A stretch of 64,000 nt of DNA. Source: Clostridia bacterium (GTDB lineage Bacteria; Bacillota; Clostridia; Oscillospirales; Acutalibacteraceae). The position numbers were made by a program, and so were the translations under genes. Below the pieces are notes generated by a model, which saw nothing but the letters and a program-made list of their open reading frames with translations, had not been told where the DNA came from and did not search any database. Positions 29,636 through 60,375 of this stretch are shown one piece after another (within the stretch, counting starts at the first letter, position 1; every line of letters starts with the position of its first letter). The stretch spans positions 1 through 64,000 of the forward strand of contig JAFQRY010000014.1 in assembly GCA_017409845.1 (NCBI GenBank), in the 5' to 3' direction.

Positions 29636-31453
29636 TCAGAAGAGTCTGAACATCTCAAAAAACTTCGCAAAGAACATGCTTAAAAAATCATAAAAGCTTA
29701 TTGTCTGAGCTCCGCTGCTGTTTGCTGAATAGCTTCTGCTCTGAACAGTACCGCATCCGTTGCACTCGCGGTGACAGATTTCCATGCCGGTTTCGCTGTC
29801 GTGAGCGTAATTGCTCCACTCACCGAAAGTGTGCTCTGATTTTGAAATGCATTTTGTTCCTGTTGTCTTGCCGCACTGAATGCAGATTTCAGAAAGAGTG
29901 CCTTCTTTGTTGCATGTAGCTTCTTCGGTAACGATTGATTCTTTGTCGGTGTGGGCGCATTCGGTTGAGGCCTGAATCATTGCGTTGCAGAAGCCGTAAT
30001 AGCTTGTTTCTTTCCAATAGTTGTATTTTGTGTTAAGCAGAATGAAGGATTCACCTTCATCGGAATGATATCTTTTGTTTGTTCCGTCTACTTCAACGGG
30101 TACCTTCACATTGCCTCCGCTGTGATAATAATAAACTGCGATCGAGAAAATCTCACCGGGGCTGAGCTCGATTTTTTTGTCGGGATAAACGGTGTGGAAT
30201 CCGCTGTTATCAGCAGAATATTCAATAGTTGCCGCAAGCGTTCCGTCGCTCGGCTTTGAATAGTTTTCGGGGAGATTTTTATAAATCTTAACATTTATAA
30301 ATGTATCGGGAAGGACTGTGTATGTTGAAACGGAGGTCAGCTTTTCGTTTCCGTCTGCAACAAAAACATTTGCAGCCGCAATTTCGGAAACGCTTGCATA
30401 AACAGAAGTATTCCATGTATCTCCGTTATGTGTATAATTTTTATAATGATTGTCTGCTGATGTGACGCTGAAGCCGATGAATTCCGTGAGATTTACATCA
30501 TAATATGAAAGAGCAAAGCATCCGTCATCGCCCCATGATCTGCCCCAGCTGTTCTGACAAATCCATGCACCGTTACCCAGCGGTGTTTTGCCTGAATTGT
30601 TTGTGAAATCCGAAGCGGGATAGCTGTCATCCCAGCCGATAACCGTAATCTGATGATTGGTTGTGTTTTCTGCGTGGCAGTAATAGGTGTTGTCTGAAGT
30701 ATCAAAATATGCATCGTTGTAATAAAACGCTGCTGAAACGCTGCCGTGCTTCATTATCCAGCTTTTGATTTCTTCGGTATCGGTAAGCTGCTGTGCGGAG
30801 TCGAGAATAACGTTTGATGAATTGTTATATCTTTCAGCTTCATCGTAATTACCCATCGAAGCAATGCTTCCGAAGGGAAAAGCTTCCTCGGTTGCTACGC
30901 CGGAGCGTCTTGCAAGAGCACCGGTTGCCATTCTCCAGTTGCCGCCCTGCTTATAAGGCGAAGCGTAATTATAACCGTCGCCGTCCGCACCGTCCGGAGC
31001 ACCTGCTGTGTTGGGTCTGCACGCAAACCATGCAAGATGTGCTTCCGAAAAGTCTGTGTTTTCAGTCTGAGTATATCCTTTTGTAATGCTGTCTGATTCA
31101 AGGGCACTGATTGTTGAAAATACCCAGCAGTTGTTTGTTACGCCCTGATATTTTGCAGGCGTTACTGAACCGTTTTCTCTTGCATCATATGAAGAGGGAA
31201 GGGGGTTGCTTTCAAGAGAACAGCAGCTTAACATGAGCTCTTCTTCGGGATCCGATAAGGAAACCTCGTTGCCGTTCTCGTCAACGAATCTTTCGGCAAT
31301 GTATCCGAATTCGCTTGGTTCACCTGACTCAATAAAAATCATTTCAGGTTTAACGGAATCTTCAGCTGTGTAAGCTGATGCAAGTGCCGCTGTATTGATA
31401 AGTGTTGCGATTGCAAGAACTGATGATAATATTTTCTTTGTGTATGCTTTCAT
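29636..31453 (-). CDS. Secreted papain-like (C1) cysteine protease
   Basis: 605 residues from ATG 31453, where the signal peptide (MKAYTKKILSSVLAIATLIN...ALASA) begins; the longer frame to 31489 adds a non-signal extension without a ribosome site. The catalytic set is present: Gln103 and Cys109 in KYQGVTNNCWVFS, His267 in TNHQITVIGWDD, Asn301 in QNSWGRSWGDDG. A beta-rich region (about 330-480), like the lectin-like domain of other clostridial C1 proteases, follows, then a Cys-rich module (CAHTD...CIQCG). The last 19 residues are strongly aromatic (FYDFLSMFFAKFFEMFRLF), like the ends of two other exported proteins in this window. It probably degrades proteins at or near the cell surface. Confidence 0.9.
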   Translation of the reverse strand: MKAYTKKILSSVLAIATLINTAALASAYTAEDSVKPEMIFIESGEPSEFGYIAERFVDENGNEVSLSDPEEELMLSCCSLESNPLPSSYDARENGSVTPAKYQGVTNNCWVFSTISALESDSITKGYTQTENTDFSEAHLAWFACRPNTAGAPDGADGDGYNYASPYKQGGNWRMATGALARRSGVATEEAFPFGSIASMGNYDEAERYNNSSNVILDSAQQLTDTEEIKSWIMKHGSVSAAFYYNDAYFDTSDNTYYCHAENTTNHQITVIGWDDSYPASDFTNNSGKTPLGNGAWICQNSWGRSWGDDGCFALSYYDVNLTEFIGFSVTSADNHYKNYTHNGDTWNTSVYASVSEIAAANVFVADGNEKLTSVSTYTVLPDTFINVKIYKNLPENYSKPSDGTLAATIEYSADNSGFHTVYPDKKIELSPGEIFSIAVYYYHSGGNVKVPVEVDGTNKRYHSDEGESFILLNTKYNYWKETSYYGFCNAMIQASTECAHTDKESIVTEEATCNKEGTLSEICIQCGKTTGTKCISKSEHTFGEWSNYAHDSETGMEICHRECNGCGTVQSRSYSANSSGAQTISFYDFLSMFFAKFFEMFRLF

Positions 31454-31565
31454 TTCGTTCACTCTTTTCTGTTTTTTAAGGCCTTTCATAACTTAAGACG
31501 AACGAAATCCCGGATTGGTTTGCTTTTTTTGAAAAATTTCAAAAATTTTTGCAAAAGAAAAAAGG

Positions 31566-31592
31566 AACTGCCTCAACTGAAGTGAGACAGTT
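31566..31592 (-). terminator. Terminator of the small membrane protein gene
   Basis: AACTGCCTCA (31566-31575) pairs with TGAGACAGTT (31583-31592) with one mismatch; the A-rich plus strand before it reads as a T-run on the minus strand. Confidence 0.6.
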
Positions 31593-31603
31593 CAATTTAA
31601 ATG

Positions 31604-31816
31604 TTATTTTGTTTCCTTGCTGCTTTTCTTTTTGCCTTTCTTTAACCCGATAACAAGAAGAATTGCACCGATAATGCCCGGAAGGCAGAAGCCCAGCAGT
31701 TCCGCAAACGAAAAAAGATTGAATGCCGTGAACATATCCGAGAATTGACCGTTGAGGATGCTTCCTATAAGACCGATTGCCTGAAGAACAAGTAAAATAA
31801 TTCCTGCGGTTTTCAT
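31604..31816 (-). CDS. Small membrane protein, unknown function
   Basis: 70 residues starting MKTAGIILLVLQAIG; GAGGAG (31825-31830) selects this ATG over longer frames. It has two hydrophobic helices joined by a short loop (NGQFSDMFTAFNLFSFAEL) and a Lys-rich cytoplasmic tail (GLKKGKKKSSKETK). I do not recognise the family. It has its own promoter and terminator, so it is an independent unit. The tail suggests the C-terminus stays in the cytoplasm. Confidence 0.75.
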   Translation of the reverse strand: MKTAGIILLVLQAIGLIGSILNGQFSDMFTAFNLFSFAELLGFCLPGIIGAILLVIGLKKGKKKSSKETK

Positions 31817-31849
31817 GAATAAATACTCCTCTTTCATTTGTTTGATTAT

Positions 31850-31878
31850 ATAATACGACATAAATTTCCAAAAATCAA
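31850..31878 (-). promoter_or_regulatory. Promoter of the small membrane protein gene
   Basis: On the minus strand TTGATT (31873-31878) and TATTAT (31850-31855) are 17 bases apart. Confidence 0.65.
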
Positions 31879-31931
31879 CTGCAAAAATATACTTTTATTA
31901 ATAAGTAAATAGTGAGAGTTAATAGTTTCGG

Positions 31932-31946
31932 AAGGGCTCCGCCCTT
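31932..31946. repeat. Short palindrome AAGGGC-TCC-GCCCTT
   Basis: The 6-bp stem is identical to that at 14291-14305, with a different loop. It begins a cluster of palindromes that fills most of the gene-free stretch 31879-32212. Confidence 0.5.
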
Positions 31947-32023
31947 ACCTGATTATATAATAAAATGCGTAATTAAGGGTTGTTTCGTTTCGATCTATTA
32001 TATACAGATAATTGGTTGTTTCG

Positions 32024-32050
32024 TGTAGGGGTCGGCGACCTGACGACCCG
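32024..32050. repeat. Intergenic repeat unit, GTAGGGGTCGGCGACC type
   Basis: This GC-rich block (TGTAGGGGTCGGCGACC followed by TGACGACCCG) stands out from AT-rich flanks. It shares the GTAGGG opening with the two units at 32112 and 32166. It looks like a dispersed intergenic palindromic element. No coding potential was seen. Confidence 0.5.
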
Positions 32051-32111
32051 TCCGCGCCGCAAGGTGCGGAAAATTTTTGAAAGAATATTGAATAAATAAT
32101 TAAATGCTTGT

Positions 32112-32145
32112 GTGTAGGGCTGGATGTGGGCATCACGCCCTACAC
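32112..32145. repeat. Intergenic repeat unit, GTGTAGGGC...GCCCTACAC palindrome
   Basis: GTGTAGGGC (32112-32120) and GCCCTACAC (32137-32145) form a perfect 9-bp inverted repeat with a 16-base middle. It is the second of three related elements in this gap. Confidence 0.6.
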
Positions 32146-32165
32146 GAGTGATATGTTTGTAATCG

Positions 32166-32190
32166 TAGGGGACGGCCTCTGTGCCGTCCC
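32166..32190. repeat. Intergenic repeat unit, GGGACGGC...GCCGTCCC palindrome
   Basis: GGGACGGC (32169-32176) and GCCGTCCC (32183-32190) flank a 6-base loop. The same stem, with the loop ATTGGT, recurs at 42822-42843, where it serves as a terminator. Confidence 0.65.
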
Positions 32191-32212
32191 GAATATCCTT
32201 AAATTCAAAAAA

Positions 32213-32235
32213 GGAGCAGGCACAAAACCTGCTCC
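32213..32235 (-). terminator. Terminator of the fur-rubrerythrin operon
   Basis: GGAGCAGG (32213-32220) pairs with CCTGCTCC (32228-32235); six A before it on the plus strand give a T-run on the minus strand. It lies 17 bases past the rubrerythrin stop. Confidence 0.85.
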
Positions 32236-32251
32236 CTTGACTATTGTTTAA

Positions 32252-32797
32252 TTAACCGAAGTATCTCTCAAGAAGACCCTGGAATGCTTTGCCGTGTCTT
32301 GCTTCGTCACGAGCCATTTCGTGAACGGTGTCGTGGATAGCGTCGAGTCCCTGCTCTTTAGCCATCTTTGCAAGCTCAAACTTACCAGCTGTTGCACCGT
32401 TTTCGGCATCAACTCTCATTTCAAGATTCTTCTTTGTGCTGTCGGTGATTACTTCGCCGAGAAGCTCTGCAAATTTTGCTGCATGCTCTGCCTCTTCATA
32501 AGCTGCCTTTTCCCAGTAAAGACCGATTTCAGGATAGCCTTCACGGTGAGCAACTCTTGCCATTGCAAGATACATTCCTACTTCTGAGCATTCGCCTTCA
32601 AAGTTAGCTCTGAGACCGTCGATGATTTCCTGGCTTACGCCCTTTGCAACGCCTACTACATGCTCTGCAGCCCATGACATTTCGCCGCTCTTCTGCTCGT
32701 TGAATTTTTCAGCGGGAACCTTGCACTGGGGGCAGAATTCGGGAGCTGAGTCGCCTTCGTGAACATAACCGCATACTGAACATACAAACTTTTTCAT
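32252..32797 (-). CDS. Reverse rubrerythrin (N-terminal rubredoxin, C-terminal ferritin-like)
   Basis: 181 residues from ATG 32797, with GGAGG about 8 bases upstream; a TTG 15 bases earlier overlaps that site. Residues 1-40 are a rubredoxin-like module with two CxxC pairs (CSVCG and CPQC). The rest is a four-helix diiron domain with the ligands EGECSE, EEAEH and MARDEARHG. The domain order is opposite to classical rubrerythrin. Such proteins reduce hydrogen peroxide (and in some clostridia O2) in anaerobes. The 51-base gap to the Fur-family gene upstream, with no promoter, indicates one operon. Confidence 0.93.
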
Positions 32798-32848
32798 AAC
32801 ATTTTCCTCCAAAATATAATTTTAAAAATTTTTGATAAATTTATTTGC

Positions 32849-33232
32849 TCATCCGACCTGCTTGCTGCAAGCGGAACAGTAGCCTGTGAATAAAACTGAG
32901 TGACCAATTATTTTTCCGTTGAAAACCTCTGATGCTTTACGGCAAAGACCGCAATCATTATCCATGAAAACATCAAAAACACCGCCGCAATTAATGCAAG
33001 ACAGATGATAGTGGAGATTGATGTTGCCGTCGTATCTTGCCGTGCCTGCTGATTCGATACGGATAATCTTTCCGTCACTTTCGAGCTGAGAAAGATTTCT
33101 GTAAACCGTTGCAAGGCTGAGGGCAGGTATTGCGGGCTTTAAGGAAAAATAAATATCCTCTGCCGTGGGATGATCATATCGTGAACAGAGGTTGTCGAAA
33201 ATGGCGTCACGCTGTTTGCTGTGTCTTACCAT
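32849..33232 (-). CDS. Fur-family metalloregulator (PerR/Fur type)
   Basis: 127 residues. The winged-helix segment LSLATVYRNLSQLESDGKI is typical of Fur proteins. Downstream come a His-rich metal site (HYHLSCINCGG), CxxC at CINC, and a second CSAC pair for structural Zn. It could sense peroxide (PerR) or iron (Fur). The neighbouring rubrerythrin favours peroxide sensing, while the operator resembles a Fur box, so I leave it open. The operator overlapping its own promoter points to autoregulation. Confidence 0.92.
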   Translation of the reverse strand: MVRHSKQRDAIFDNLCSRYDHPTAEDIYFSLKPAIPALSLATVYRNLSQLESDGKIIRIESAGTARYDGNINLHYHLSCINCGGVFDVFMDNDCGLCRKASEVFNGKIIGHSVLFTGYCSACSKQVG

Positions 33233-33248
33233 CTGGCTCTCTCCTTTC

Positions 33249-33267
33249 GATAACGATAATCGTTATC
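33249..33267. promoter_or_regulatory. Fur-box-like operator
   Basis: GATAACGATAATCGTTATC is a 19-bp palindrome (perfect apart from the central base) and is very close to the classical Fur consensus GATAATGATAATCATTATC. It lies just downstream of the -10 of the fur-family promoter, where bound repressor would block transcription. Confidence 0.85.
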
Positions 33268-33270
33268 ATT

Positions 33271-33299
33271 ATCATATCAGCAGAATTCCATTTTGTCAA
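33271..33299 (-). promoter_or_regulatory. Promoter of the fur-rubrerythrin operon
   Basis: On the minus strand TTGACA (33294-33299) and TATGAT (33271-33276) are 17 bases apart, a near-consensus promoter next to the palindromic operator. Confidence 0.85.
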
Positions 33300-33367
33300 T
33301 ACTTTTTTGAAAAAAATTTTGTTTTTTACCGAATATATTCCGGAAATTGCCGAATGTATTGATTTAC

Positions 33368-33396
33368 TTGAAAAACAAGCGGTTTTGTTATATTAT
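33368..33396 (+). promoter_or_regulatory. Promoter of the LytTR/DUF3021 operon
   Basis: TTGAAA (33368-33373) and TATTAT (33391-33396) are 17 bases apart, followed by AAGGAGG at 33406-33412. Confidence 0.55.
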
Positions 33397-33417
33397 TCAG
33401 ATGTAAGGAGGCTTCTT

Positions 33418-33852
33418 ATGAAATTCAGACTGATTGTTGATAAAACCCGTGAGGAAGAGGTGATTGTTTATACACATAAAGAAACAAAGCTGACTGACGA
33501 ATTGAAAAGAATAGCTGAAAGCGATTCAAAAGAGCTTGTGGGCTATGTTGAGCGTGAAGCATATAAAATCATGTTGACTGAAGTTATCTGCTTTGTTTCT
33601 GAGGATAATAATGTTTATGCGATAACTCCCGAAAACAGACTCAGAATAAAATTACGTTTATATCAGCTTGAAGAAATGCTTGATTTGAATTTTATAAAAA
33701 TAAATCAGTCATGCATTGCCAATATAAATGAAATCAAAAAGTTTGATGCGTCAATATCGGGAACGCTCAGAGTAGTTTTTAAAAACGGTTATACCGATTA
33801 TGTTTCACGACGAAACATAAAAACAATAAAGGAAAGGCTTGGTATAATATAA
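33418..33852 (+). CDS. LytTR-domain DNA-binding regulator
   Basis: 144 residues from ATG 33418, with AAGGAGG six bases upstream; a longer frame starting inside the divergent fur gene is not used. The N-terminal ~45 residues are a small alpha-beta region. The C-terminal ~100 residues are a LytTR domain (ITPENRLRIKLRLYQLEEML, FIKINQSCIANINEIKKF, YTDYVSRRNIKTIKERLG). It lacks a receiver domain. Proteins of this type are usually encoded next to a DUF3021 membrane protein, as here, and may control it. Stop and next start share a base. Confidence 0.9.
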   Translation: MKFRLIVDKTREEEVIVYTHKETKLTDELKRIAESDSKELVGYVEREAYKIMLTEVICFVSEDNNVYAITPENRLRIKLRLYQLEEMLDLNFIKINQSCIANINEIKKFDASISGTLRVVFKNGYTDYVSRRNIKTIKERLGII

Positions 33853-34268: not shown

Positions 34269-34274
34269 AAAAAG

Positions 34275-34306
34275 ACGGACTGCAGCCAAAATGGGTTGCA
34301 GTCCGT
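34275..34306. terminator. Bidirectional terminator between convergent genes
   Basis: ACGGACTGCAGCC (34275-34287) pairs with the stem at 34293-34306 with one G-T pair. There is an A-run before it and TTTCTT after, serving the DUF3021 gene and the convergent glycosidase gene. Confidence 0.8.
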
Positions 34307-34335
34307 TTCTTGTTACTGAAATATAATAAATTGTA

Positions 34336-36237: not shown

Positions 36238-36280
36238 TGTATACACCACCAGATTATGTTTATATGAATTGTCTTATAAA

Positions 36281-36763: not shown

Positions 36764-36794
36764 TTTTATTCCTCTTTTTGAAAAGATTTGAATT

Positions 36795-36823: not shown

Positions 36824-36880
36824 TATGTATCGGAATTTTGTTTGACAAGCAGTTTACACCGCATTTTTTCTTTTTACAGG

Positions 36881-45352: not shown

Positions 45353-48300
45353 ATGAAAAAATTATTAAAGCAAGCATTATCAATCGTTCTTGTTGTGGTA
45401 ATGGTATTCGGAGCTGCACCTCTCGCAGGTCTTGCAGGCATCGAACTCCCCGATTTCAGCAGCCTCTTTGCACCTAAGGCAAAGGCTGAAGAAATCGCAA
45501 CAAGCGGCACCTGCGGCGAAAACCTTACATGGGAATTCGACGAAGCAACAGGTACCCTCACAATCAGCGGCGAGGGTTACATGGAATCGTGGTACAGCAC
45601 CCAAACTCCCTGGGACAGTTTTAGATTATTAACGAAAAATGCAGTTATTGAAAATGGTGTAAAAAGCATTGGAGGATTTGCTTTTAGAGGTTTTAAGGCA
45701 TTAGAAAAAATTGTTATTCCACATACTGTTGAAATGATTGATTCCTTTGCTTTTAATGATTGTTGTTCACTGCTTGAAATTGATCTTGATAAAAATAATA
45801 TCTGTTTTTCAGTGGATGAATATGGCGTTCTGATTAGCAGAAATTCCCAGTTAATTAAATGCCCTGCGAGAATAAATTTGACAAGCTATACAATTCCTGA
45901 AAATGTAAATTGGATAGAACAAAGAGCTTTTAGTTGCTGTACCTCACTTGAAAACATTATAATACCAAATACAGTATGGTATATTGGTAATTGTGCTTTT
46001 GAAGGTTGCACAAATATAACAGATTTATTTATTCCTGATAGTGTTAGTTCTATGGATTTTTCTGCGTTTGAGGGCTGTTCAACACTTGAAACAATAAAAG
46101 TTGATAGGAATAATTCGTCTTATTTAAATGATGACTATGGTGTATTATATGATAAAGATAAGACCACTTTGATTAAATACCCTGAAGGTTCTAAAAACAA
46201 GAACTATGCTATCCTAGAAGGTGTTAAATATATAGAGGGTGATGGCTTTTGCGGTAATTCTATGCTTGAAAGGATAAAGCTTCCAAACAGCCTGACGGTT
46301 GTTACAAATAAAATGTTTGCCGAATGTACCGGACTTTTAGAAATCAGTATTCCTGATAATGTTACTGTAATAGAGGATGAAGCGTTTCGAGATTGTTCCA
46401 ATTTAAAAAGCATCACTATACCGTCACAAGTAACATATATAGGTTACAGTGCTTTTGGTTATTGTGTCAGTTTGAGTGATATAAAGTTTTCTGAAGGACT
46501 AAAATCAATTGGTGAACTTGCTTTTACTAATTGTGTTAATTTGAAAAGTATTATAATCCCCCAAAGTACCCAATTTATAGGTTTAGGTGCTTTCTATTTC
46601 TGCGAGTCGCTTGAAAATGTAATTATTCCGGATGGTGTGAATATATCATATAATCCTTTTATCGATACAGCTATGTATGAGAAGTTTTTGAATAGTGACG
46701 AGGATGTTTGGTATATAGGTAATTATTTAATAGAAGCAAAAAATTCATTGAAAGGAAAGTATGAGATAAAAAGCGGAACAAAAGAAATTTGTGATGGTGC
46801 GTTTGGCGGATGCTCATTCATTACTAGTGTAATAGTTCCGAACACGGTAACTAATCTGAGAAATGGTGTCTTTTCAGGCTGTTCATCCTTGTCTAATGTT
46901 ATTTTGCCTGATACATTAATGAGCATAGGGTATGGAACATTCAAAGATTGTATATCGCTTGAAAATATATCTTTACCCACCAGTGTTACAAGTATAGACA
47001 GTGAGTCATTTGATAATACAGGTATATATAACAAAATATCAAACTGGGAAGAAGATGTTTTATATATAGGTAATAATCTTATTGTTGGTAAAAAAGTATC
47101 GTCAGATTCATATTCTGTTAAATCTGGAACAAAAATAATTGCCAACCGAGCTTTTGCTTATTGCGATTCATTGAAAAGCCTAAAAATTCCTACTACCGTA
47201 AAGTATATAGGTATAGAAGCTTTTTATAAATGTGAAAATATTGAATCTGTATATTTTGAAGGAAATATAAAAGATTGGTTAGATATTACTTTTGCGACAT
47301 ATGATGCATTCGACGGATGGTTCGATGAAACTTCCAATCCTTTACATAGCGGAGCAAATCTTTATTTTGAAGATCAGCTTGTGACTGATTTGGTTATTCC
47401 TAAAAATATTGAGATTATTAAACCTATTACATTTTCTGGTTGTGAAAGTATTGAAAGTATATCGCTTGAAGATGATAGCCAATTAACTCATATAGGATGT
47501 CAGGCTTTTAGTTACTGTGTTAATCTTGATCGAGTTTCTTTAGACAAAGCAACGAGATTAAATATAATTGATACTCATTCATTTTGTAATTATCGTGATA
47601 TAGAAAGTATCACTCTCCCGGCAAGTGTAAATGTCATAAATGCAGGATTATCTGCTAAAAATGTTTATTTTAGTGGTGATATTTATGATTGGTGTAAAAT
47701 TTCTTTTGGTGTATCAATTATATTTGGCGATCCGGGAAAGTTGTTTTTTAACGGGGAGCTTGTAACGGATTTAGTTATTCCGAATGATATAACAGAAATC
47801 AAAGATAGTGCATTTCAAGGATGTTCAAGCATAACAAGTCTAACTTTTGCCGAAGATGCTAAAATCGAAAAAATAGGTCTTGCTGCATTTGGAGAATGCT
47901 ATAATTTAGAAAAAGTGAAATTACCTGAAGGATTAATCGATTTGTCAGGAGCAACATTTCGTTCATGCATGAAATTGAAGTGCATTAAAATTCCATCGTC
48001 GGTAGAAATAATAGGTGATGCGGTCTTTCTTGATAGTGGACTTGAAAAGGTTATTTTTGAGGAAAACAGCTCTTTAAAAATAATAGGTGATTTCGCTTTC
48101 AATGATACCTGTATAGAATATATAGAAATTCCTGAAACGGTAACCGAAATCGGAACATATGCATTTGAGCGTAACGATCTGAAAACTGTTGTTTTTAAAG
48201 GGAACAGTAATCTTAAGAGTATTGGTAGTGAAGCATTCAGATATTGTACCACTTTAGAATTATTTGAAATTCCTGCAGGTGTTACAAGTATAGGCAGATA

Positions 48301-49453
48301 TGCATTTGACATGTGTTACTCCCTTAAACGTGTTCATATCCCGCCAAGTGTTTTGGTAATCGGAAATAATATTTTGTCAAAAACAACAGCATATATTTGT
48401 TCGTCAACAGAAGATTGTTATGCGAAGACCTATGCAGATGAAAACGGTTATACTTTTAAACTTTGTGATGGACATGATGATGAATGCAAACATATTCCTA
48501 CAACAATAACTGTTTCTGCAACTTGCAAAGCGACAGGCATGAGTTATGATGTGTGCATGTATTGCGGTGTTTCTATGGGTAATGAAATTGTTTTGCCTAA
48601 AACGGATCATATTCCCGGTGATTGGATAATTATTGTGAATCCAACAACTGAAACCGAGGGAAAAAGAGTAAAAAAATGTACGGTTTGCGGAAAAGTGGTT
48701 GATGAAGAAGACACTTCAAAATTAGCTGTTATTGTTGATGAAGATACAGGTGTTGAATTTATTTACAATCCCGATGACTATGAAGGAAAGCCAAAATTGA
48801 AAGTTGAAGAATCTTTTGATGAGGTTGCTTTGCAGATAGTCAATCTGAAAACCGGTGCAGTATCTCAGCAGATTTTTAATATAACAATGCTTCTTGATGG
48901 TGATGAAATACAACCTAAAGATTATGTTACCATTAAAATACCCGTTCCTGAGAGTTTTGATCCTGATTACATTCATATTTATTATGTTAATTCAAAAACG
49001 GGAAATGCAGAAAAACTTGAAAGTTGGATTGAAGACGGCTTTGTTGTATTCTCAACCGACCATTTCAGCTATTATGCACTTGTTCAGAAGGTCGGAGAAA
49101 TTGAAATCCGTAAGCCTTCGGTAACGGAAATCAAATACGGTGACAGCATTATTCTTCACGCCGATGTGAAGGGTGCACTTCCCGAGGGTGCAACAATTGA
49201 GTGGACTGCTTCAAACGAAAACTTCACTTATTCCGTATCGGCAGACGGCACGGCATGCACTGTTTCTCCCTCCTCAAGCGGTGATACAACCTTCACGGCT
49301 ACCGTATATGACGAAAGCGGAAATGTTATCCGCAAGGATACTCAGGTTATGACTTCTAAGGCAGGCTTCTTCCAGAAGATTATTGCTTTCTTCAAGAAAC
49401 TTTTCGGTATGACCAAGCTTATACCCGAAGAAATCAGAAATGTGTTCCGATGA
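45353..49453 (+). CDS. Secreted BspA-type leucine-rich repeat protein
   Basis: 1366 residues. A signal peptide (MKKLLKQALSIVLVVVMVFG...) leads into a short linker. About 30 or more LRR_5/BspA-type repeats run from about 60 to 1030 (pattern IxIPxxVxxIGxxAFxxCxxLxxV). Then come a Cys-rich region with CMYCG and CTVCG, a beta-rich region (about 1120-1240), an Ig-like domain (about 1245-1335), and a C-terminal aromatic helix (FFQKIIAFFKKLFGM). BspA repeats mediate binding to host proteins or other bacteria in several species. Codon usage of the repeat region is much more AT-rich than both ends of the gene. GAGGAGG precedes the ATG. Confidence 0.9.
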   Translation: MKKLLKQALSIVLVVVMVFGAAPLAGLAGIELPDFSSLFAPKAKAEEIATSGTCGENLTWEFDEATGTLTISGEGYMESWYSTQTPWDSFRLLTKNAVIENGVKSIGGFAFRGFKALEKIVIPHTVEMIDSFAFNDCCSLLEIDLDKNNICFSVDEYGVLISRNSQLIKCPARINLTSYTIPENVNWIEQRAFSCCTSLENIIIPNTVWYIGNCAFEGCTNITDLFIPDSVSSMDFSAFEGCSTLETIKVDRNNSSYLNDDYGVLYDKDKTTLIKYPEGSKNKNYAILEGVKYIEGDGFCGNSMLERIKLPNSLTVVTNKMFAECTGLLEISIPDNVTVIEDEAFRDCSNLKSITIPSQVTYIGYSAFGYCVSLSDIKFSEGLKSIGELAFTNCVNLKSIIIPQSTQFIGLGAFYFCESLENVIIPDGVNISYNPFIDTAMYEKFLNSDEDVWYIGNYLIEAKNSLKGKYEIKSGTKEICDGAFGGCSFITSVIVPNTVTNLRNGVFSGCSSLSNVILPDTLMSIGYGTFKDCISLENISLPTSVTSIDSESFDNTGIYNKISNWEEDVLYIGNNLIVGKKVSSDSYSVKSGTKIIANRAFAYCDSLKSLKIPTTVKYIGIEAFYKCENIESVYFEGNIKDWLDITFATYDAFDGWFDETSNPLHSGANLYFEDQLVTDLVIPKNIEIIKPITFSGCESIESISLEDDSQLTHIGCQAFSYCVNLDRVSLDKATRLNIIDTHSFCNYRDIESITLPASVNVINAGLSAKNVYFSGDIYDWCKISFGVSIIFGDPGKLFFNGELVTDLVIPNDITEIKDSAFQGCSSITSLTFAEDAKIEKIGLAAFGECYNLEKVKLPEGLIDLSGATFRSCMKLKCIKIPSSVEIIGDAVFLDSGLEKVIFEENSSLKIIGDFAFNDTCIEYIEIPETVTEIGTYAFERNDLKTVVFKGNSNLKSIGSEAFRYCTTLELFEIPAGVTSIGRYAFDMCYSLKRVHIPPSVLVIGNNILSKTTAYICSSTEDCYAKTYADENGYTFKLCDGHDDECKHIPTTITVSATCKATGMSYDVCMYCGVSMGNEIVLPKTDHIPGDWIIIVNPTTETEGKRVKKCTVCGKVVDEEDTSKLAVIVDEDTGVEFIYNPDDYEGKPKLKVEESFDEVALQIVNLKTGAVSQQIFNITMLLDGDEIQPKDYVTIKIPVPESFDPDYIHIYYVNSKTGNAEKLESWIEDGFVVFSTDHFSYYALVQKVGEIEIRKPSVTEIKYGDSIILHADVKGALPEGATIEWTASNENFTYSVSADGTACTVSPSSSGDTTFTATVYDESGNVIRKDTQVMTSKAGFFQKIIAFFKKLFGMTKLIPEEIRNVFR

Positions 49454-49535: not shown

Positions 49536-50501
49536 ATGTGTACGGCAATTTCGTTTGATTCAAACGGTCTTTATTTCGGAAGAACTCTCGACAATGATTT
49601 TTCTTTTGGTGAAAAAGTGACGGTAACTCCGAGAAACTTTCCGCTTGAATTCAGAAAAGCAGGCAGGCTTGATTCTCATTTTGCGATAATCGGCATGGCG
49701 TTTGTCAAGGATAATTATACGCTTTATTATGATGCCATGAATGAGTGCGGGCTTTGCATGGCAGGTCTGAATTTTGTCGGGAATGCAGTTTATAACGAAG
49801 CGGTTGAAGATAAACAAAATATCGCTCAGTTTGAGCTTCTGCCATGGATTCTTGCGAAATGCAGAAGTGTTGATGAGGCGTGCAGTCTGCTTGAAAAAAC
49901 AAATATAACAAACGAAGCTTTCAGCACGAATTTGCCCGCATCACAGCTTCATTGGCTTGTTGCTGATAAAAACCGCACGATTACCGTTGAATGCACTGCA
50001 GACGGAATGAAAATATATGATAACCGTCTTGGTGTTCTGACCAACAATCCGCCGTTTGACAAGCAGGTGGAGAATTACAAAAAATATTTTTATCTTTCTG
50101 CAAAAGACCCTGAAGATTTTGATTATAAAGAAGGACATTACAGTAAGGGGGTCGGTACAATCGGTCTGCCGGGTGACCTGACATCTCAGTCAAGGTTTGT
50201 AAGGGCTGCGTTTGTGAAAAACAATTCGGTTACGGGGAACAATGAAAACGAAAGCGTTAACAGCTTTTTTCATATAATGAATTCCGTTGAACAGCAGAGG
50301 GGATGCTGTGTTTTCGATGAAGATAAATATGAGATAACCATATACACCTCTTGCTGCAGTGCGGATAACGGTATTTATTATTATACAACCTATGGCAACC
50401 ACAGGATTTCCGCGGTAGATATGAATAAAGAAAATCTTGACTCTGAAAGGCTTGTTTGTTATCCGCTTATCAAAAACGAACGGATTGAAATGCAGAATTG
50501 A
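49536..50501 (+). CDS. Choloylglycine hydrolase family (bile salt hydrolase / penicillin V acylase)
   Basis: 321 residues. The N-terminal nucleophile is Cys2 (MCTAISF), exposed by removal of Met. Other active-site positions match the family: Arg16 and Asp19 in GRTLDND, Asn79 in MAGLNF, Asn170/171 in LTNNPPFD, and Arg220/223 in SQSRFVR after GLPGD. It cleaves amides such as glycine- or taurine-conjugated bile salts, or penicillin V; deciding between them needs the substrate loops or an assay. It lacks a signal peptide, which is normal for bile salt hydrolases. AAGGAGG precedes the ATG. Confidence 0.92.
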   Translation: MCTAISFDSNGLYFGRTLDNDFSFGEKVTVTPRNFPLEFRKAGRLDSHFAIIGMAFVKDNYTLYYDAMNECGLCMAGLNFVGNAVYNEAVEDKQNIAQFELLPWILAKCRSVDEACSLLEKTNITNEAFSTNLPASQLHWLVADKNRTITVECTADGMKIYDNRLGVLTNNPPFDKQVENYKKYFYLSAKDPEDFDYKEGHYSKGVGTIGLPGDLTSQSRFVRAAFVKNNSVTGNNENESVNSFFHIMNSVEQQRGCCVFDEDKYEITIYTSCCSADNGIYYYTTYGNHRISAVDMNKENLDSERLVCYPLIKNERIEMQN

Positions 50502-53178: not shown

Positions 53179-53194
53179 GGAGGGAGTGGTGCAA

Positions 53195-54462: not shown

Positions 54463-56893
54463 TCCGTTCCGTTTTACCTTTTTGAGAACCTGCTCAAGAA
54501 ACTGGCTTGTTCCTCTCGGCGTTTTTCTTCTTACGGGATATGCATTCTTCGTTTGCGGATTTGTTGATGCCAAAAGAAACTACAACAGAAACCTCACAGA
54601 CGGCTCTGTTGCATATTATCTTGCAAATCACAAATTTCAGCTTTCCGATAATAACTGGGGCGGACTCGGATTTGTCATTGATCTGCTGCTGATTGCTGCC
54701 TCGGTTGTGCTGGCAATTTCAATATTCCGCTATATGTTTTCAAAGAAATCGGTCAATGTCTATTATTCTCTCGGAATGAAAAGGGGAGAAATGTTCCTTT
54801 CGAAATATCTTGCAGGTGCATTTCTGCTCACCGTTTCCGTTGTGATACCCATGCTTGCGGATGTTATCGGCAATATCACGATTTTCGGCTCATCAAAGGA
54901 GCTGTGGATATCCGCAATTTATATGACGGTATGTGTTGTTCAGATGATGCTTTATGCATATTCGGTAACCGTTCTTGTCTGCTGCTGTGTGGGTACGATT
55001 CTTGAAGCGGGATTTTTCGGACTTGTGTTCATTGCCTCTCCGATTATCGCGGAGTATCTTGTATCAGTGCTTTTCAAAACCGTTCTTTACGGTTCACCCT
55101 ATGGCGGTGGCTTTGACTATTCAACCATGATTTACGGTCAGGGACATTACAGACCGCCCGTGAGCTTTACTGCATTGCAGAATAATATCCTCTTTTTTGC
55201 TTCGGGTCGTTTCAGCAAATATCACGAGCTTCAGAGGGGAATTGAAGAAGTTCCCTATAATTTTAAAAATCCGCAGCTTCTTCCCGTGCTTGTTATGCTT
55301 GCGGTAATAGTTGCCGTTGCGTTTGCATCGTATGTTTTCTATAAAAAACGCAAGAACGAAATTGCGGGCTTCCTCGGCTCAAATCCCGTTATAACGGGTA
55401 TCGGGATATTTACGATTTCGGCTTTTCTGTTTGCGTTTATTTCCCGTCATATCGTTTATCTTGATCATTCAAACAGATATCTCGCCTTCCTTCTTGCTTT
55501 TGGTATGATATTTGTTGTTTACACCGTTATTCAGATTATTTCTCTCAGAAGCATAAAGCTTTTCTTTAAAAAGTTCCGCTTCATTACCGTTCATTTTGCA
55601 CTTATGGCTGCATTGATTGCTGTTTTTGTGACCGGTCTTTTCGGCTACAGCACAAGAATTCCCGATAAATCCGAAATTGAAAAAATAGCAGTTTCAACCG
55701 GTACGGGCGATATTTTTTATAATAATGCAAGCAGTTACTCAACGGTGCATTCCTTTGTGGATTCATATTATCAGGGAATAACCGTTGATGCAGGTGTGAA
55801 AGCAGAGCAGAATACGCTTTATCTTATTGACGGCTATGATTCTCCCGAAGAGGTTGAGCATATTCTCGATATTCACCGCAGACTCATAGAAATGAAAGAT
55901 GATGACTTTTCTCCCGAGGCAAGACGAAAGTCGTTCGGTGAAAGAAAGGTTCTGAGTGCAACGAGAATAATCTATACTCTCAAAGACGGAAGTACATTTG
56001 ACAGACTTTATACCTGCTCGGATGACGAAACAAACAGATTGCTTTCTCAGCTGACAAGAACCGAAAATTATAAAAAAGGTGCCGCCGAAGAACTTTCATG
56101 GTATTTCGGATTTAAAGAAGTAACGTTTGAAAACGATGAGTATTCCGAATACGGTTATCTGCTTGGTGATTATGAGATTTCCGTTCCTGCAGATGAAATT
56201 CTTGTTTCGATTGCATCGCCAAACTATTCTTCTTTGAAAACCGCTCCTTCACTCAATACGAAGGAATCCTTCCGTGAGCTTTATGATGCTCTGGCATCCG
56301 ACATCCTTTCAGGCAGGCTTCCGCTTGATTTCAACACGGATTCTCCCGTCAAAGGCTATATTCAGCTGTCAAGCTATAACGAGTCTTATTTTGATAAACC
56401 TAAGGAAATGACCGAAAGCTGGCACACCAATAATGTGATTATTTCGATAGGCGATGCAAATATTGTTATTCCGGTCTACGAGAGCATGACGGATACACTT
56501 GCCGTTATTGAAAAACACGGTTGCACCTCGCTTTTTGAAAATGCCAAAGAGCCTGTTGCGGTCGAAACATGGAAATACGGCGAAAAGGCACTTGACCCTT
56601 ACGGCTCAATAAAAACAACTCTTATTCAGGGTGTTTATCTAAATAACGAAGGCAAGATTGATGAGTTTTCGACTTATTATTCATCGTTTGATGAAAACGG
56701 AGAAAAACTCAATATGGTTGCTCCGAAGCTTGCACCCGATGCCGTTGAAACGGATAACCCGATTCAGATAAAGAAGTATTCCGATGCTTTCAGGATGATG
56801 ACTCTTGACTGTTTCGACGGATATTATGTGAGGCTCATATTTGAAGACGGCTCCTGCGTTTACGGATATGCACCGATGACTCTGGTTGAATAA
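54437..56893 (+). CDS. ABC transporter permease with large extracytoplasmic domain
   Basis: 818 residues from ATG 54437, with GGAGGG upstream; a longer frame from 54377 lies within the ATPase gene. About ten hydrophobic helices occur in the first ~420 residues (a six-helix ABC-2-like half and a further group at about 295-415). A soluble domain of about 400 residues follows. The layout matches clostridial permeases paired with YtrA regulators, which carry a C-terminal domain of unknown function. Likely export of, or defence against, membrane-active compounds (inference). Confidence 0.8.
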   Translation: MTSKKSSVNPFRFTFLRTCSRNWLVPLGVFLLTGYAFFVCGFVDAKRNYNRNLTDGSVAYYLANHKFQLSDNNWGGLGFVIDLLLIAASVVLAISIFRYMFSKKSVNVYYSLGMKRGEMFLSKYLAGAFLLTVSVVIPMLADVIGNITIFGSSKELWISAIYMTVCVVQMMLYAYSVTVLVCCCVGTILEAGFFGLVFIASPIIAEYLVSVLFKTVLYGSPYGGGFDYSTMIYGQGHYRPPVSFTALQNNILFFASGRFSKYHELQRGIEEVPYNFKNPQLLPVLVMLAVIVAVAFASYVFYKKRKNEIAGFLGSNPVITGIGIFTISAFLFAFISRHIVYLDHSNRYLAFLLAFGMIFVVYTVIQIISLRSIKLFFKKFRFITVHFALMAALIAVFVTGLFGYSTRIPDKSEIEKIAVSTGTGDIFYNNASSYSTVHSFVDSYYQGITVDAGVKAEQNTLYLIDGYDSPEEVEHILDIHRRLIEMKDDDFSPEARRKSFGERKVLSATRIIYTLKDGSTFDRLYTCSDDETNRLLSQLTRTENYKKGAAEELSWYFGFKEVTFENDEYSEYGYLLGDYEISVPADEILVSIASPNYSSLKTAPSLNTKESFRELYDALASDILSGRLPLDFNTDSPVKGYIQLSSYNESYFDKPKEMTESWHTNNVIISIGDANIVIPVYESMTDTLAVIEKHGCTSLFENAKEPVAVETWKYGEKALDPYGSIKTTLIQGVYLNNEGKIDEFSTYYSSFDENGEKLNMVAPKLAPDAVETDNPIQIKKYSDAFRMMTLDCFDGYYVRLIFEDGSCVYGYAPMTLVE

Positions 56894-56899
56894 TGCTTG

Positions 56900-56942
56900 A
56901 TTCTCCTGCGGATTATTAATCGGATCTGCAGGAGAATTTTTT
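56900..56942 (+). terminator. Terminator of the GntR-ABC operon
   Basis: ATTCTCCTGC (56900-56909) pairs with GCAGGAGAAT (56928-56937), followed by a run of T. Confidence 0.85.
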
Positions 56943-56994
56943 ACACAATCAAGCATTTTTGTATATAATTAAATGTGTTTGTCTGTATAAAAGA

Positions 56995-57023
56995 TTGATT
57001 TTTTTGATGTTAACTGATATAAT
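56995..57023 (+). promoter_or_regulatory. Promoter of the amide-synthetase/hydrolase operon
   Basis: TTGATT (56995-57000) and TATAAT (57018-57023) are 17 bases apart, about 30 bases before the ATG. Confidence 0.7.
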
Positions 57024-57061
57024 ATATTGTCAAATAATATATTATAGGATGTGATACTGCC

Positions 57062-58789
57062 ATGGCGTTTTCAGACTTCGGAATACTGCTCGGAGATGTT
57101 TCGCTTGCGGAAATTGAGCATTATACCAAAAATCCGATGAAAGCACAGGAAAGCACCCTCAGAAAAATTCTCGGAAGAAACAAGAATTGCGAGATAGGAA
57201 AAAAGTATAATTTCAAGGATATCAGAACAATTGCCGAATATCAGGCGAAGGTTCCTCTTTCAACCTACGAGGATTATGAACCCTATGTTGAAAGGATGAT
57301 ACATAACAAAGAGAATAACCTGATGTTTTCGGGCATTAATGTGAGATACTGCTCGTCATCGGGCAGTGTCGGCAAACCTAAAATTCTTCCCAAGGGCATA
57401 AAAGACCTCTGGAATATGCAGTGCATCGGCTTTTCATGTACCGTTGCAACCGCAGCCCATCACCTCAGAAAGGTCAAAGGCATAAAGATGCCTGCTCAGA
57501 TGGGTCCGCTTGTGCTTATTCTTACCGGTCATCCTCTTGAAGACGGAAAAATGTGCAACGGTGCGGGTCAGGTTCCTCTTACATATCTCAAGGCAATTAC
57601 GCCTTTTTTCTGCACATCTCCCACCTCGCTTCTTTATCCCGAGCACGAGGAGCTTATTGACACTTCATATCTTCAGCTTCGCTTTGCTCTTGAAAACGCA
57701 AAGGTCAGCTACATAGGCTCTCTTGTTGTTACCCTTGTTACGACAATGTTTGATTATCTTGAAGAAAACTGGGAGATGCTCTGTGACGATATCGAAAAGG
57801 GTATCATCAATCCCAAGGTGAAGATTACTCCCGAGCTCTATAATGAATACGCAAAGAAATTCAAGCCCAATCCCCGAAGAGCGGCGGAGCTCCGCAGAGA
57901 GTTTGAAAAGGGTTTTGATACACCTATTGCACCCCGCATCTGGCCGAAGCTCACATGGGCTTACGGAATGGTAGGCTCAAACCTCAAGGTCTATGTCGAA
58001 AAGCTCCGCAAATCAATCGGTGACGATATTCCCATCCATAACATGGGCTTTGCTGCAGCAGAAGGCTTCTTTTCAATGGCAACAGAGCTTGATGTGCATG
58101 ACGGAGTGCTTCTTCCCCATTGCCTTTTCTTTGAATTTCTTCCCGTTGATGATGAAGAAGAGGGTGCAGACGAAAACGCAACTCCGCTTCTCATTAATCA
58201 GCTTGAAATCGGAAAGAAATATGAAATCATTGTTTCAAATTTTTCGGGACTTTACAGATACCGCATGGAGGATGTTGTTGAGGTCACGAGGATGCATAAC
58301 AACACGCCGATGATTGAATTCCTTTATCGCAGAAACCTCGGCATGAATATTGCAAACGAAAAAACAACCACTCAGATGGTGGATTTTGCCGCAAAGCAGA
58401 CTGCTGAGGCAATGGGTAACGAATTCGTCGGCCACAGCATGTATGCCGACTATTCAACCAATCCTCCCAGATACTGCATGCTTGCTGAGCCCGTTAATCC
58501 CGTAAGCGAAGAAGACAGACAGAAATATATTGATATTCTTGACGAAAAGTTCAAGGAATTCAACGAAAAATATTTCAAATACCGCCGCTGGGGAATGATC
58601 AACCGCCCCGAGGTGCTCTTCCTTAAGCCCAAAACCTATTGGGACTACAGAGAAAGCCTTCGTGAAAAAGGCAGGGTGCTTAATCAGATAAAACCCGTAA
58701 CAATCATCAACAGTGAGGAAAGATGCGAATTCTTCTTCTCGCATGTTGCAACAGAAACTGAGCTTCCTTACAAGCCAAAACAAAAATAA
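57062..58789 (+). CDS. GH3 auxin-responsive-family acyl-acid amido synthetase
   Basis: 575 residues. This is the plant GH3/JAR1-like adenylating family (not glycosidase family 3). The ATP-binding loop is CSSSGSVGKPK (97-107), HNMGFAAAEG is in the middle, and YRYRMEDVVEV (about 398-408) carries the hinge motif. Full length for the family. Plant members activate a carboxylic acid with ATP and join it to an amino acid. Bacterial gut members are common but mostly uncharacterised, so acid and amine are unknown. Cytoplasmic. A secreted alpha/beta hydrolase follows after 14 bases. Confidence 0.9.
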   Translation: MAFSDFGILLGDVSLAEIEHYTKNPMKAQESTLRKILGRNKNCEIGKKYNFKDIRTIAEYQAKVPLSTYEDYEPYVERMIHNKENNLMFSGINVRYCSSSGSVGKPKILPKGIKDLWNMQCIGFSCTVATAAHHLRKVKGIKMPAQMGPLVLILTGHPLEDGKMCNGAGQVPLTYLKAITPFFCTSPTSLLYPEHEELIDTSYLQLRFALENAKVSYIGSLVVTLVTTMFDYLEENWEMLCDDIEKGIINPKVKITPELYNEYAKKFKPNPRRAAELRREFEKGFDTPIAPRIWPKLTWAYGMVGSNLKVYVEKLRKSIGDDIPIHNMGFAAAEGFFSMATELDVHDGVLLPHCLFFEFLPVDDEEEGADENATPLLINQLEIGKKYEIIVSNFSGLYRYRMEDVVEVTRMHNNTPMIEFLYRRNLGMNIANEKTTTQMVDFAAKQTAEAMGNEFVGHSMYADYSTNPPRYCMLAEPVNPVSEEDRQKYIDILDEKFKEFNEKYFKYRRWGMINRPEVLFLKPKTYWDYRESLREKGRVLNQIKPVTIINSEERCEFFFSHVATETELPYKPKQK

Positions 58790-58803
58790 AAGAAGGTCTT
58801 TAA

Positions 58804-60375
58804 ATGAAAAGAATAGTATCGTTGCTGCTATGTGCCGTTATATTATTTACTGCCGTTGTTTCTGCTGCACCCGTTTCGGTTGCGGCGGAAGATGCTGCGG
58901 TTATACCGGTTGTTCATGTTGTCGGAACGGGTACTCCGATAAGCAGAAAGAACGCTGAAGGAGAAACCGAAAGAGTTTATCCCGTGCAGATTCCCGAGGG
59001 ATATATTGAGGAAAAAGCAAAAATATTTCTTCCCGTTTTTGCCGAAGCGTTTTTTACCCAGAGGTGGGATGAATTCTGCGATGTTCTTTATGAAATCCTT
59101 TCTCCTCTTTTCAGCTCAATGGCACTTGACAAAAACGGAGAGGTAACAGACGGAAGTTATGTTGAATGGACATGGTCTCTTGAGTCTCTTGCGGCTGATA
59201 CGAGAGCTGACGGAACCTACGGCGTTACCGATTATATGTTCCATTATGACTGGCGTCTTGATCCGATGATTATTGCAGATACCCTTCATCGGTATATAGA
59301 GGATGTGCTGACTGTTACGGGTGCCGAGAAGGTTGCACTTTACGGCAGATGCCTCGGCTCAAACATAGTTGCCGCATATATGCATAAATATGGCGGAGAG
59401 CATGTCTGTGAAGTCATTCACTATGCAAGTGCGCTTTACGGAGCTACTCAGTGCAGCAAGGTTTTTACGGGCGAGCTCAGATTACATGCTGACGGAATCG
59501 AACGCTTTGTATATGACATAAACCTTGATATTGATGAATATTTTATGGGCTTCATTCAGGCATTTGTTTCGCTTCTCAACAAAACCTACGGGCTTGATAT
59601 AACCTGCTGGGCAATCAACAATGTTATGGAAGATATCTATCTTGACATAATCCCGAGAGTTATTGCGGAAAGCTACGGAACATTTCCTGCTTATTGGGGC
59701 ATGGTACGCATTGAGGATTACGAAAAAGCGAAGGAAACCGTTTTTTACGGCTCGGATATTTCGGAGTATTCAAAGCTTATCGAAAAAATCGAGTATTTCC
59801 GTAACAATGTTCAGCTTACATTTGAAGACGATGTCAAAAAACTCCGTGAATCGGGCATTGAATTTTCAAATATCGTGAAATACGGTTATCAGAGCATTCC
59901 CGTAACCGAAGAAGGCGACGCACTTTCCGATGCTCTGTGCAGCGTTGAAAAAAGCTCATTCGGAGCCGCAACAGCTCTTGTCAACGAAAGCTTCTCCGAC
60001 GATTATATTGAAAAAGCAAAAGAAAAAGGCACCTTTAACTATATTTCACCCGATAAACAGATAGATGCTTCAACCTGCCTTTCTCCGGACACAACATGGT
60101 TTGTCAAGAATCTTTTTCATACGGATTTTCCGACCTGCATCAACGGGTTGGTCAGCGAGATAGTCAATAATGACGGATATACCGTCACAAGCAGTGCGGA
60201 ATATCCTCAGTATCTTGTTTATAATAAAGAAGATAATCGGCTTGTTCCGATGGATTCCGGAAACATGAATACGACTCAGAGATGGGAAGTAACATTTTTT
60301 GAAGCTTTTGTTTCGTTCTTTAAAAATCTTCTTAAAATGATTGAGGGCAAGGTTGCGGAATCATTTGCAAAATAA
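58804..60375 (+). CDS. Secreted alpha/beta hydrolase, lipase/LCAT-like
   Basis: 523 residues with a signal peptide (MKRIVSLLLCAVILFTAVVSAAPVSVAA). The early strand IPVVHVVGTG, FHYDWRLDP and the nucleophile elbow YGRCLGSNIVAAYM follow the LCAT/lipase plan. The elbow carries Cys183 where most lipases have Ser (GxSxG). SPDTTWFVKNLFHTDFP near residue 430 probably supplies catalytic Asp and His. The C-terminus (FFEAFVSFFKNLLKM) shares the aromatic motif of two other exported proteins here. It is probably co-transcribed with the amide synthetase; substrate unknown. Confidence 0.75.
   Translation: MKRIVSLLLCAVILFTAVVSAAPVSVAAEDAAVIPVVHVVGTGTPISRKNAEGETERVYPVQIPEGYIEEKAKIFLPVFAEAFFTQRWDEFCDVLYEILSPLFSSMALDKNGEVTDGSYVEWTWSLESLAADTRADGTYGVTDYMFHYDWRLDPMIIADTLHRYIEDVLTVTGAEKVALYGRCLGSNIVAAYMHKYGGEHVCEVIHYASALYGATQCSKVFTGELRLHADGIERFVYDINLDIDEYFMGFIQAFVSLLNKTYGLDITCWAINNVMEDIYLDIIPRVIAESYGTFPAYWGMVRIEDYEKAKETVFYGSDISEYSKLIEKIEYFRNNVQLTFEDDVKKLRESGIEFSNIVKYGYQSIPVTEEGDALSDALCSVEKSSFGAATALVNESFSDDYIEKAKEKGTFNYISPDKQIDASTCLSPDTTWFVKNLFHTDFPTCINGLVSEIVNNDGYTVTSSAEYPQYLVYNKEDNRLVPMDSGNMNTTQRWEVTFFEAFVSFFKNLLKMIEGKVAESFAK

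What the first reader, a model, noticed from the sequence alone, without database searches (positions are those of the whole stretch)
29639..60372. Shared C-terminal aromatic helix on three unrelated exported proteins: candidate new surface-retention signal
The papain-like protease (29636-31453, minus), the leucine-rich protein (45353-49453) and the alpha/beta hydrolase (58804-60375) have no common domain. Each has a signal peptide and ends in one aligned block: FYDFLSMFFAKFFEM, FFQKIIAFFKKLFGM, FFEAFVSFFKNLLKM. The pattern is F-[FY]-x2-h-h-x-F-F-x-[KN]-h-h-x-M, followed by 4 to 13 residues (exact spans 29639-29695, 49367-49450, 60295-60372). None has LPxTG, SLH, choline-binding or a normal transmembrane anchor. 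An amphipathic aromatic helix at the very end could insert into the membrane interface or be recognised by a sorting factor. Convergent positions, all terminal and all exported, argue against chance. I know of no named signal of this form.
Basis: partly seen in the sequence, partly recalled or inferred. Interest (0 to 1): 0.85.

Follow-up and report, generated by a model that had tools for sequence, protein, structure and literature searches.

The report
Shared C-terminal anchor helix, gut Clostridia
Many unrelated secreted proteins in a lineage of ruminant-gut bacteria end in the same short, greasy, positively charged helix, which most likely holds them to the outer face of the cell membrane and matches no model in the protein-family catalogues searched.

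Summary
A profile of 37 tails, none from the window, recovers only the leucine-rich protein's tail (E 5e-17); the hydrolase's is marginal (0.028) and the papain-like protease's is not found. Those two belong to their own families with their own amphipathic ends. The real tail, about GFFxKIIxFFKxLFG plus 6-18 residues, gives 425 hits in 44 of 45 same-genus genomes at E<=0.05; a reversed profile gives 5. All 78 hits inspected lie at the stop, and 65 of 66 complete proteins have a Sec-like signal by my rule. Hosts include LRR, subtilase, M23, CHAP, CAP and GH3 proteins. Six tails scanned alone reach no Pfam or NCBIfam cut-off. AlphaFold makes the tail a helix right after an Ig-like stalk; its physical values match the E. 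coli PBP5 anchor. Best reading: a PBP5-like in-plane membrane anchor used as a general retention tail. Three near-invariant Phe leave a specific receptor possible. Membrane binding is inferred, not shown.

The parts
45353..49453 (+). P0002: exported BspA-type leucine-rich-repeat protein, the one window protein with the canonical tail
   Evidence: translation; Pfam LRR_5 E 6e-158; signal peptide MKKLLKQALSIVLVVVMVFGAAPLAG (sequence; rule)
49097..49360 (+). Ig-like stalk domain just before the tail (about residues 69-156 of the folded piece window:48893-49450)
   Evidence: AlphaFold model, pLDDT of most blocks 90-98, beta sandwich; Foldseek matches to Ig-like domains of S-layer protein, lambda gpV and intimin, best E 3.9e-4, modest scores
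49364..49450 (+). Canonical retention tail GFFQKIIAFFKKLFG-MTKLIPEEIRNVFR; the predicted helix is FFQKIIAFFKKL
   Evidence: HMM without window tails, E 5e-17; helix 159-170 of the model, block pLDDT 92-96
58804..60375 (+). P0003: exported protein of a multi-copy family (9 matches in this genome), probable alpha/beta hydrolase; fold not predicted here
   Evidence: weak NCBIfam match to a PHA depolymerase, E 0.0069, below cut-off
60295..60372 (+). P0003 C-terminal amphipathic aromatic segment: similar physics, family-specific sequence
   Evidence: marginal in the HMM without window tails, E 0.028
29636..31453 (-). P0001: exported papain-like protease with lectin-like domain
   Evidence: Pfam Peptidase_C1 E 3.7e-23, Lectin_like E 5e-21
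29639..29695 (-). P0001 C-terminal helix FYDFLSMFFAKFFEMFRLF: shared in kind with its close relatives, not recovered by the canonical tail profile

Best explanation
The canonical tail is a portable C-terminal in-plane (monotopic) membrane anchor. Proteins leave by Sec. The tail folds as a short amphipathic helix; its Phe/Ile/Leu face sinks into the outer leaflet of the cytoplasmic membrane, while its Lys/Arg residues sit at anionic headgroups. An Ig-like stalk or other domain just before it lifts the working domain toward the wall. It works like the C-terminal helix of PBP5/DacA but is used as a general retention tail for many unrelated proteins. A second form (B) has the same helix between Cys/His clusters (CxCxCH ... 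CxCGxxH). Shown here by computation: homology, terminal position, link to export, spread over unrelated domains, predicted helix, physical match to E. coli PBP5. Inferred: membrane binding, topology, retention.
For: 425 hits in 44 of 45 genus genomes against 5 for the reversed profile. Core ends 6-18 aa before the stop in 78 of 78; Sec-like signal in 65 of 66 complete proteins, while the same rule fires on 14 of 50 window ORFs and 193 of 591 other fetched ORFs. Further sets: 21 of 21 loci read from other genera at the stop, and 20 of 20 stretches near the stop with a Sec-like signal. Unrelated hosts among 56 scanned: LRR_5 28, Flg_new 16, Big_2 7, Peptidase_S8 3, CAP 2, M23 2, CHAP 1, GH3 1. 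Tail swap: three homologues of the window's protease carry the canonical tail, while its close relatives carry another helix. Physics, 86 tails: moment 0.65, mean H 0.82, charge +2.2, interfacial dG -3.6; E. coli PBP5: 0.65, 0.84, +1, -3.2; 80% of tails pass a combined filter against 11% of other C-termini. Not a transmembrane helix: 1 of 86 reaches KD19 of 1.6, at 1.61. Some DacA proteins of the genus end in amphipathic helices of like layout. Codon identity at identical residues is 0.58 against 0.45 expected from usage, so the sequence is kept mainly by selection rather than recent copying.
Against: No experiment. The profile does not recover DacA tails as relatives (E. coli DacA E 1.3, 15 genus DacA frames no better than E 2.3), so PBP5 is an analogy, and the genus's own DacA tails have a less favourable interfacial energy (about 0 to +3.3 in six). 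Three core Phe are almost invariant (66/66, 65/66, 66/66), more than a generic amphipathic helix needs. The AlphaFold helix has block pLDDT 92-96, which would also fit a helix packed on the Ig domain; I had no contact map. 42 of 45 genus genomes also have sortases, so the lineage does not lack another anchor. The non-tail C-terminus control is contaminated with related proteins.
Confidence: 0.6

Rival explanations
1. Receptor or sorting-factor signal: the FFxKIIxFFKxLF helix is read by a specific membrane or wall protein, which tethers or processes it, like a dockerin or a sortase-type C-terminal signal.
For: Near-invariant Phe in unrelated proteins (entropy 0-0.11 bits at three positions) while other hydrophobic positions swap I/L/V, and while the C-helix of 25 P0001 relatives varies at most hydrophobic positions. 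Conserved Gly and Lys. Narrow 6-18 aa distance to the stop.
Against: No recurrent neighbour gene: among the 15 largest clusters of non-tail ORFs, none outside families that contain tail proteins reaches more than 6 of 133 partly overlapping loci. No tripartite motif-TM-basic layout. No genome-wide co-occurrence test could be run.
Confidence: 0.25
2. The helix is a C-terminal cap or oligomerisation element of the Ig-like domain, with no membrane role.
For: Confident AlphaFold helix straight after the last Ig strand.
Against: In the alignment of 52 C-termini the helix is far more conserved than the Ig domain before it. Form B has a Cys-rich run before the helix. Favourable interfacial energy and positive charge.
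Confidence: 0.1
3. The tails are membrane-active (antimicrobial or modulin-like) ends that act on other cells after secretion.
For: One weak NCBIfam match, to phenol-soluble modulin epsilon, E 0.019 and below its cut-off; cationic amphipathic composition.
Against: In the hits inspected the tail ends large proteins, and many hosts look adhesin-like or wall-active. Processing was not tested.
Confidence: 0.05

Closest known systems
C-terminal in-plane membrane anchor of PBP5/DacA (low-molecular-weight PBPs)
   Same: Extreme C-terminus of a Sec-exported protein; about 15-residue aromatic amphipathic helix after a beta domain; near-identical moment, hydrophobicity and interfacial energy to E. coli PBP5; 7 of 14 residues identical without gaps to the tail core, 2 of 20,000 shuffles as good.
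   Different: There one enzyme family has its own anchor; here one conserved sequence sits on many unrelated proteins. Not recovered as a relative by profile. Phe positions more rigid here.
C-terminal sorting tags: LPxTG, PEP-CTERM, GlyGly-CTERM, MYXO-CTERM
   Same: A C-terminal homology region shared by proteins that have a signal peptide and are otherwise unrelated; protein families whose members carry different tails (PMC3237569, abstract and section list; PMC11980579, abstract).
   Different: Those have motif, transmembrane helix and basic cluster, and a partner protease; here no transmembrane helix and no partner found among neighbours.
Phenol-soluble modulins and amphipathic antimicrobial peptides
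   Same: Short cationic amphipathic helix; weak match E 0.019.
   Different: Those are free peptides (recalled); this is the end of large exported proteins.

Membership tests
PBP5/DacA-type in-plane amphipathic anchor | Located at the extreme C-terminus of an exported protein | tested here: met
   78 of 78 within 6-18 aa of the stop; 65 of 66 complete proteins with a Sec-like signal
PBP5/DacA-type in-plane amphipathic anchor | Amphipathic helix with membrane-interface energetics, not a transmembrane helix | tested here: met
   helix in one model; moment 0.65, dG -3.6; 1 of 86 at KD19 1.6 or more. Prediction only
PBP5/DacA-type in-plane amphipathic anchor | Sequence homology to DacA anchors or a DacA catalytic domain | tested here: not met
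   tail profile does not recover E. coli DacA (E 1.3) or any of 15 genus DacA frames (best E 2.3) (a first run had nine of them in a wrong frame); Peptidase_S11 is not among the 25 families listed of 33
PBP5/DacA-type in-plane amphipathic anchor | Removal releases the protein from the membrane | not testable with these tools
   needs fractionation
LPxTG / PEP-CTERM / GlyGly-CTERM / MYXO-CTERM sorting tags | Tripartite motif, transmembrane helix, basic C-terminal cluster | tested here: not met
   1 of 86 reaches KD19 1.6; longest run without D/E/K/R/N/Q/H/P 11 residues; loose LPxTG-like match in 3 of 86
LPxTG / PEP-CTERM / GlyGly-CTERM / MYXO-CTERM sorting tags | Co-distributed processing protease | not tested
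   only neighbours and sortase presence in 42 of 45 genomes were looked at; no phylogenetic profiling
Any catalogued family in Pfam-A or NCBIfam | A model covering the tail | tested here: not met
   6 tails scanned alone: 0 Pfam at E<=10; 1 NCBIfam match, E 0.019, below its cut-off
Phenol-soluble modulin | NCBIfam equivalog cut-off | tested here: not met
   14.7 bits against 33

The most novel reading that the evidence does not exclude
The tail is a dedicated surface-sorting code: a lineage-specific membrane or wall receptor reads the invariant Phe face of the helix and gathers the many unrelated tail-bearing exported proteins of a cell at one site, with form B (Cys/His-flanked) as a second, metal- or disulphide-locked address.
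Probability: 0.22. Interest if true: 0.82.

Novelty: new variant of a known kind. Interest (0 to 1): 0.62.

Why it matters
If right, a short profile would at once assign a likely location (outer face of the membrane, under or through the wall) to many surface proteins of uncultured gut Clostridia: LRR adhesin-like proteins, proteases, wall hydrolases. It would extend the PBP5-type anchor from a feature of one enzyme family to a general, exchangeable retention tag alongside sortase signals. It would also offer a small non-covalent anchor for surface display in Gram-positive bacteria.

Tried and rejected
Rejected: that the three window tails are shown to be one family. Rejected: a plain transmembrane anchor. 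Rejected: recent DNA copying of the tail as the main cause of its sameness (codon identity 0.58 against 0.45 expected; some excess remains). Rejected: descent from DacA, as far as a profile can show. Rejected: absence of sortase as the reason for the tail (42 of 45 genomes have one). No recurrent neighbour gene among the 15 largest clusters. A first pattern scan of the window used a wrong register and gave two unrelated matches. Rfam and tRNA scans of the window found nothing. PDB sequence search with the tail profile gave two chance-level matches, best E 0.41. Form B profile in the class: only the own genome of 391, but at most 19 candidates per genome were scored. Structure of P0003: the job failed and was not repeated. 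The DacA comparison had nine minus-strand frames wrong; it was redone with the same outcome.
Full report
CHECK. The three proteins and tails exist as described. Pfam gives Peptidase_C1 plus Lectin_like for P0001, LRR_5 (and LRR_8) for P0002 and nothing for P0003. No Rfam family at its gathering score and no tRNA lies in the window.

IS IT ONE FAMILY? A profile of the three tails finds more tails in the own genome; an enlarged profile gives ten at E<=2e-4, one of them in a 54-residue frame. I then ran a profile of 37 tails, none from the window, against 721 window ORFs (row count). P0002 is found at domain E 5e-17, P0003 at 0.028, P0001 not at all. Of 30 loci read for relatives of P0001, most end in a helix of their own, roughly GNxITLxxLLxMIFxRI; a few more distant ones end otherwise and one is cut off. 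P0003 belongs to a family with 9 matches in the own genome and 1-13 per genus genome, whose 30 members read end in varied amphipathic segments.

THE REAL FAMILY. In the genus, 44 of 45 genomes have the tail at E<=0.05, 425 matches in all (summed). The reversed profile gives 5 matches in 45 genomes, best E 0.007, one of them inside a DacA frame. The tool listed only part of the 425. From 141 non-own rows that I copied I took every second one (71) and added 7 own-genome places. In 78 of 78 the core ends 6-18 residues before the stop. Of these, 66 are complete frames of at least 100 residues, and 65 have a Sec-like signal by a home-made rule. The rule fires on 14 of 50 non-overlapping window ORFs, some of them plainly membrane or cytosolic proteins. 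The 12 others are short or open at the 5' end of the stretch.

SPREAD. Family: 54 of 398 genomes and 20 of 135 genera at E<=0.001. Order: 3 of 295 genomes, own included. Class, form B profile: own only, of 391, with at most 19 candidates scored per genome. In other genera, 21 of 21 loci read have the tail at the stop (one further locus, L305, was not read), and 20 of 20 further stretches (17 other genera, 3 same genus) are terminal with a Sec-like signal. An earlier, looser family search (E<=0.01) was less clean: of 21 loci read, 20 and one, 13 end long frames, 7 lie in frames of 61 residues or less, and 1 is N-terminal. The own genome has one N-terminal resemblance just after a signal peptide, at E 0.22. 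Named records found with form A are metagenome-assembled Clostridia; most titles name colon, rectum or caecum of goat, sheep, deer, water buffalo, yak or cattle, and one is labelled Oscillospiraceae.

TWO FORMS. Form A...TMTSKAGFFQKIIAFFKKLFGLTKxIPE..., typically after an Ig-like stretch. Form B: CxCxCHxGGIxGFFYKIVLFFQKLFGxNKVCxCGxxH(Y), Cys/His clusters on both sides; 12 of the 66 complete proteins by a filter on Cys, CH and a final His.

HOSTS. 56 representative tail proteins, which share little outside the tail (mean column identity 7%), match 33 Pfam families, 25 listed: LRR_5 28, Flg_new 16, Flg_new_2 10, Big_2 7, Peptidase_S8 3, CAP 2, M23 2, ricin lectin 2, CHAP 1, GH3 1 among them. Three of the 59 representatives were left out by the size limit.

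TAIL SWAPPING. Three homologues of P0001 (29-30% identity over more than 500 residues, loci L336-L338) carry the canonical tail, while P0001 and its close relatives carry the other helix. The catalytic part is kept and the end is exchanged.

STRUCTURE AND PHYSICS. AlphaFold on the last 186 residues of P0002 with 51 relatives gives an Ig-like sandwich followed by a helix at residues 159-170, FFQKIIAFFKKL, block pLDDT 92-96. Foldseek finds Ig-like domains, modest scores. Over 86 tails: moment 0.65, mean hydrophobicity 0.82, charge +2.2, Wimley-White interfacial sum -3.6; E. coli DacA 0.65, 0.84, +1, -3.2 (scale values recalled). Other C-termini in fetched loci (591, contaminated with related proteins): 0.48, 0.48, +0.6, +2.2; 11% of them and 80% of tails pass a combined filter. 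P0001 and P0003 ends also score as amphipathic (0.59 and 0.76). Six genus DacA tails have high moments (0.67-0.80) but interfacial sums of about 0 to +3.3, weaker than the canonical tail. Maximum KD19 in the last 60 residues averages 1.00; one of 86 reaches 1.6.

SELECTION. Within genomes, tail residues are 68.5% identical between paralogous tails, while codon identity at identical residues is 0.58 against 0.45 expected from usage. Phe at core positions 9, 10 and 14 is 66/66, 65/66 and 66/66; positions 6, 7 and 13 swap I/L/V. The Phe rigidity goes beyond simple amphipathicity and is the best argument for a specific reader.

MECHANISM. The nearest known mechanism is the PBP5 anchor. PMC2909392 (passages) states that the amphipathic C-terminal helix attaches PBP5 to the cytoplasmic membrane and that a form lacking the last 18 residues is soluble and largely loses its septal localisation. 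PMC1564421 (passages) describes in-plane membrane anchors as a class. Of 30 S11-family loci read in this genus, some end in comparable amphipathic helices, others in transmembrane segments, and one is cut off. The tail profile does not recover E. coli DacA or 15 genus DacA frames: works like, not a member of. For C-terminal sorting tags I saw the abstracts and section lists of PMC3237569 and PMC11980579; their transmembrane part is absent here.

PARTNER. Among the 15 largest clusters of non-tail ORFs around 133 partly overlapping loci, none outside families that contain tail proteins reaches more than 6 loci. Sortases occur in 42 of 45 genus genomes. Genome-wide co-occurrence was not tested.

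NOVELTY. Six tails scanned alone match no Pfam model and no NCBIfam model above cut-off. A literature search for four core strings returned 0 papers; searches on C-terminal amphipathic anchors, sorting signals and BspA-like proteins showed nothing of this form in their listings (titles and abstract starts only, except the four papers named above). Only open-licence PubMed Central papers were searched. I judge it a new variant of a known kind.

Noticed in passing
58804-60375 and loci L242-L271: P0003 belongs to an exported family (9 matches in the own genome, up to 13 per genus genome) with no Pfam match at E<=0.001; its likely nucleophile elbow reads GRCLG, and the Cys (183) and the last Gly (185) are invariant in 29 aligned members, i.e. 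a Cys in place of the usual Ser of an alpha/beta hydrolase.
   Followed up: partly
49536-50501: A choloylglycine (bile salt / linear amide) hydrolase family protein (Pfam CBAH E 1.9e-96) directly follows the tail-bearing LRR gene.
   Followed up: no
57062-58789: A protein of the GH3 family (PF03321 E 2e-70), which I recall as named after plant auxin-conjugating enzymes, lies just before P0003.
   Followed up: no
G000:C32:105238-105288 (locus L153): A partial tail, E 2e-4, in a 54-residue frame without an exported protein in front of it in that frame.
   Followed up: no
Form B tails, e.g. L152, L345, L348: Helix flanked by strongly conserved CxCxCH-type and CxCGxxH clusters: possible metal or disulphide lock, unexplained.
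   Followed up: partly
G000:C14:118774-118845 (locus L010): An N-terminal resemblance of the helix right after the signal peptide of a 367-residue frame (E 0.22); probably chance, but in the mirror position of the tail.
   Followed up: no
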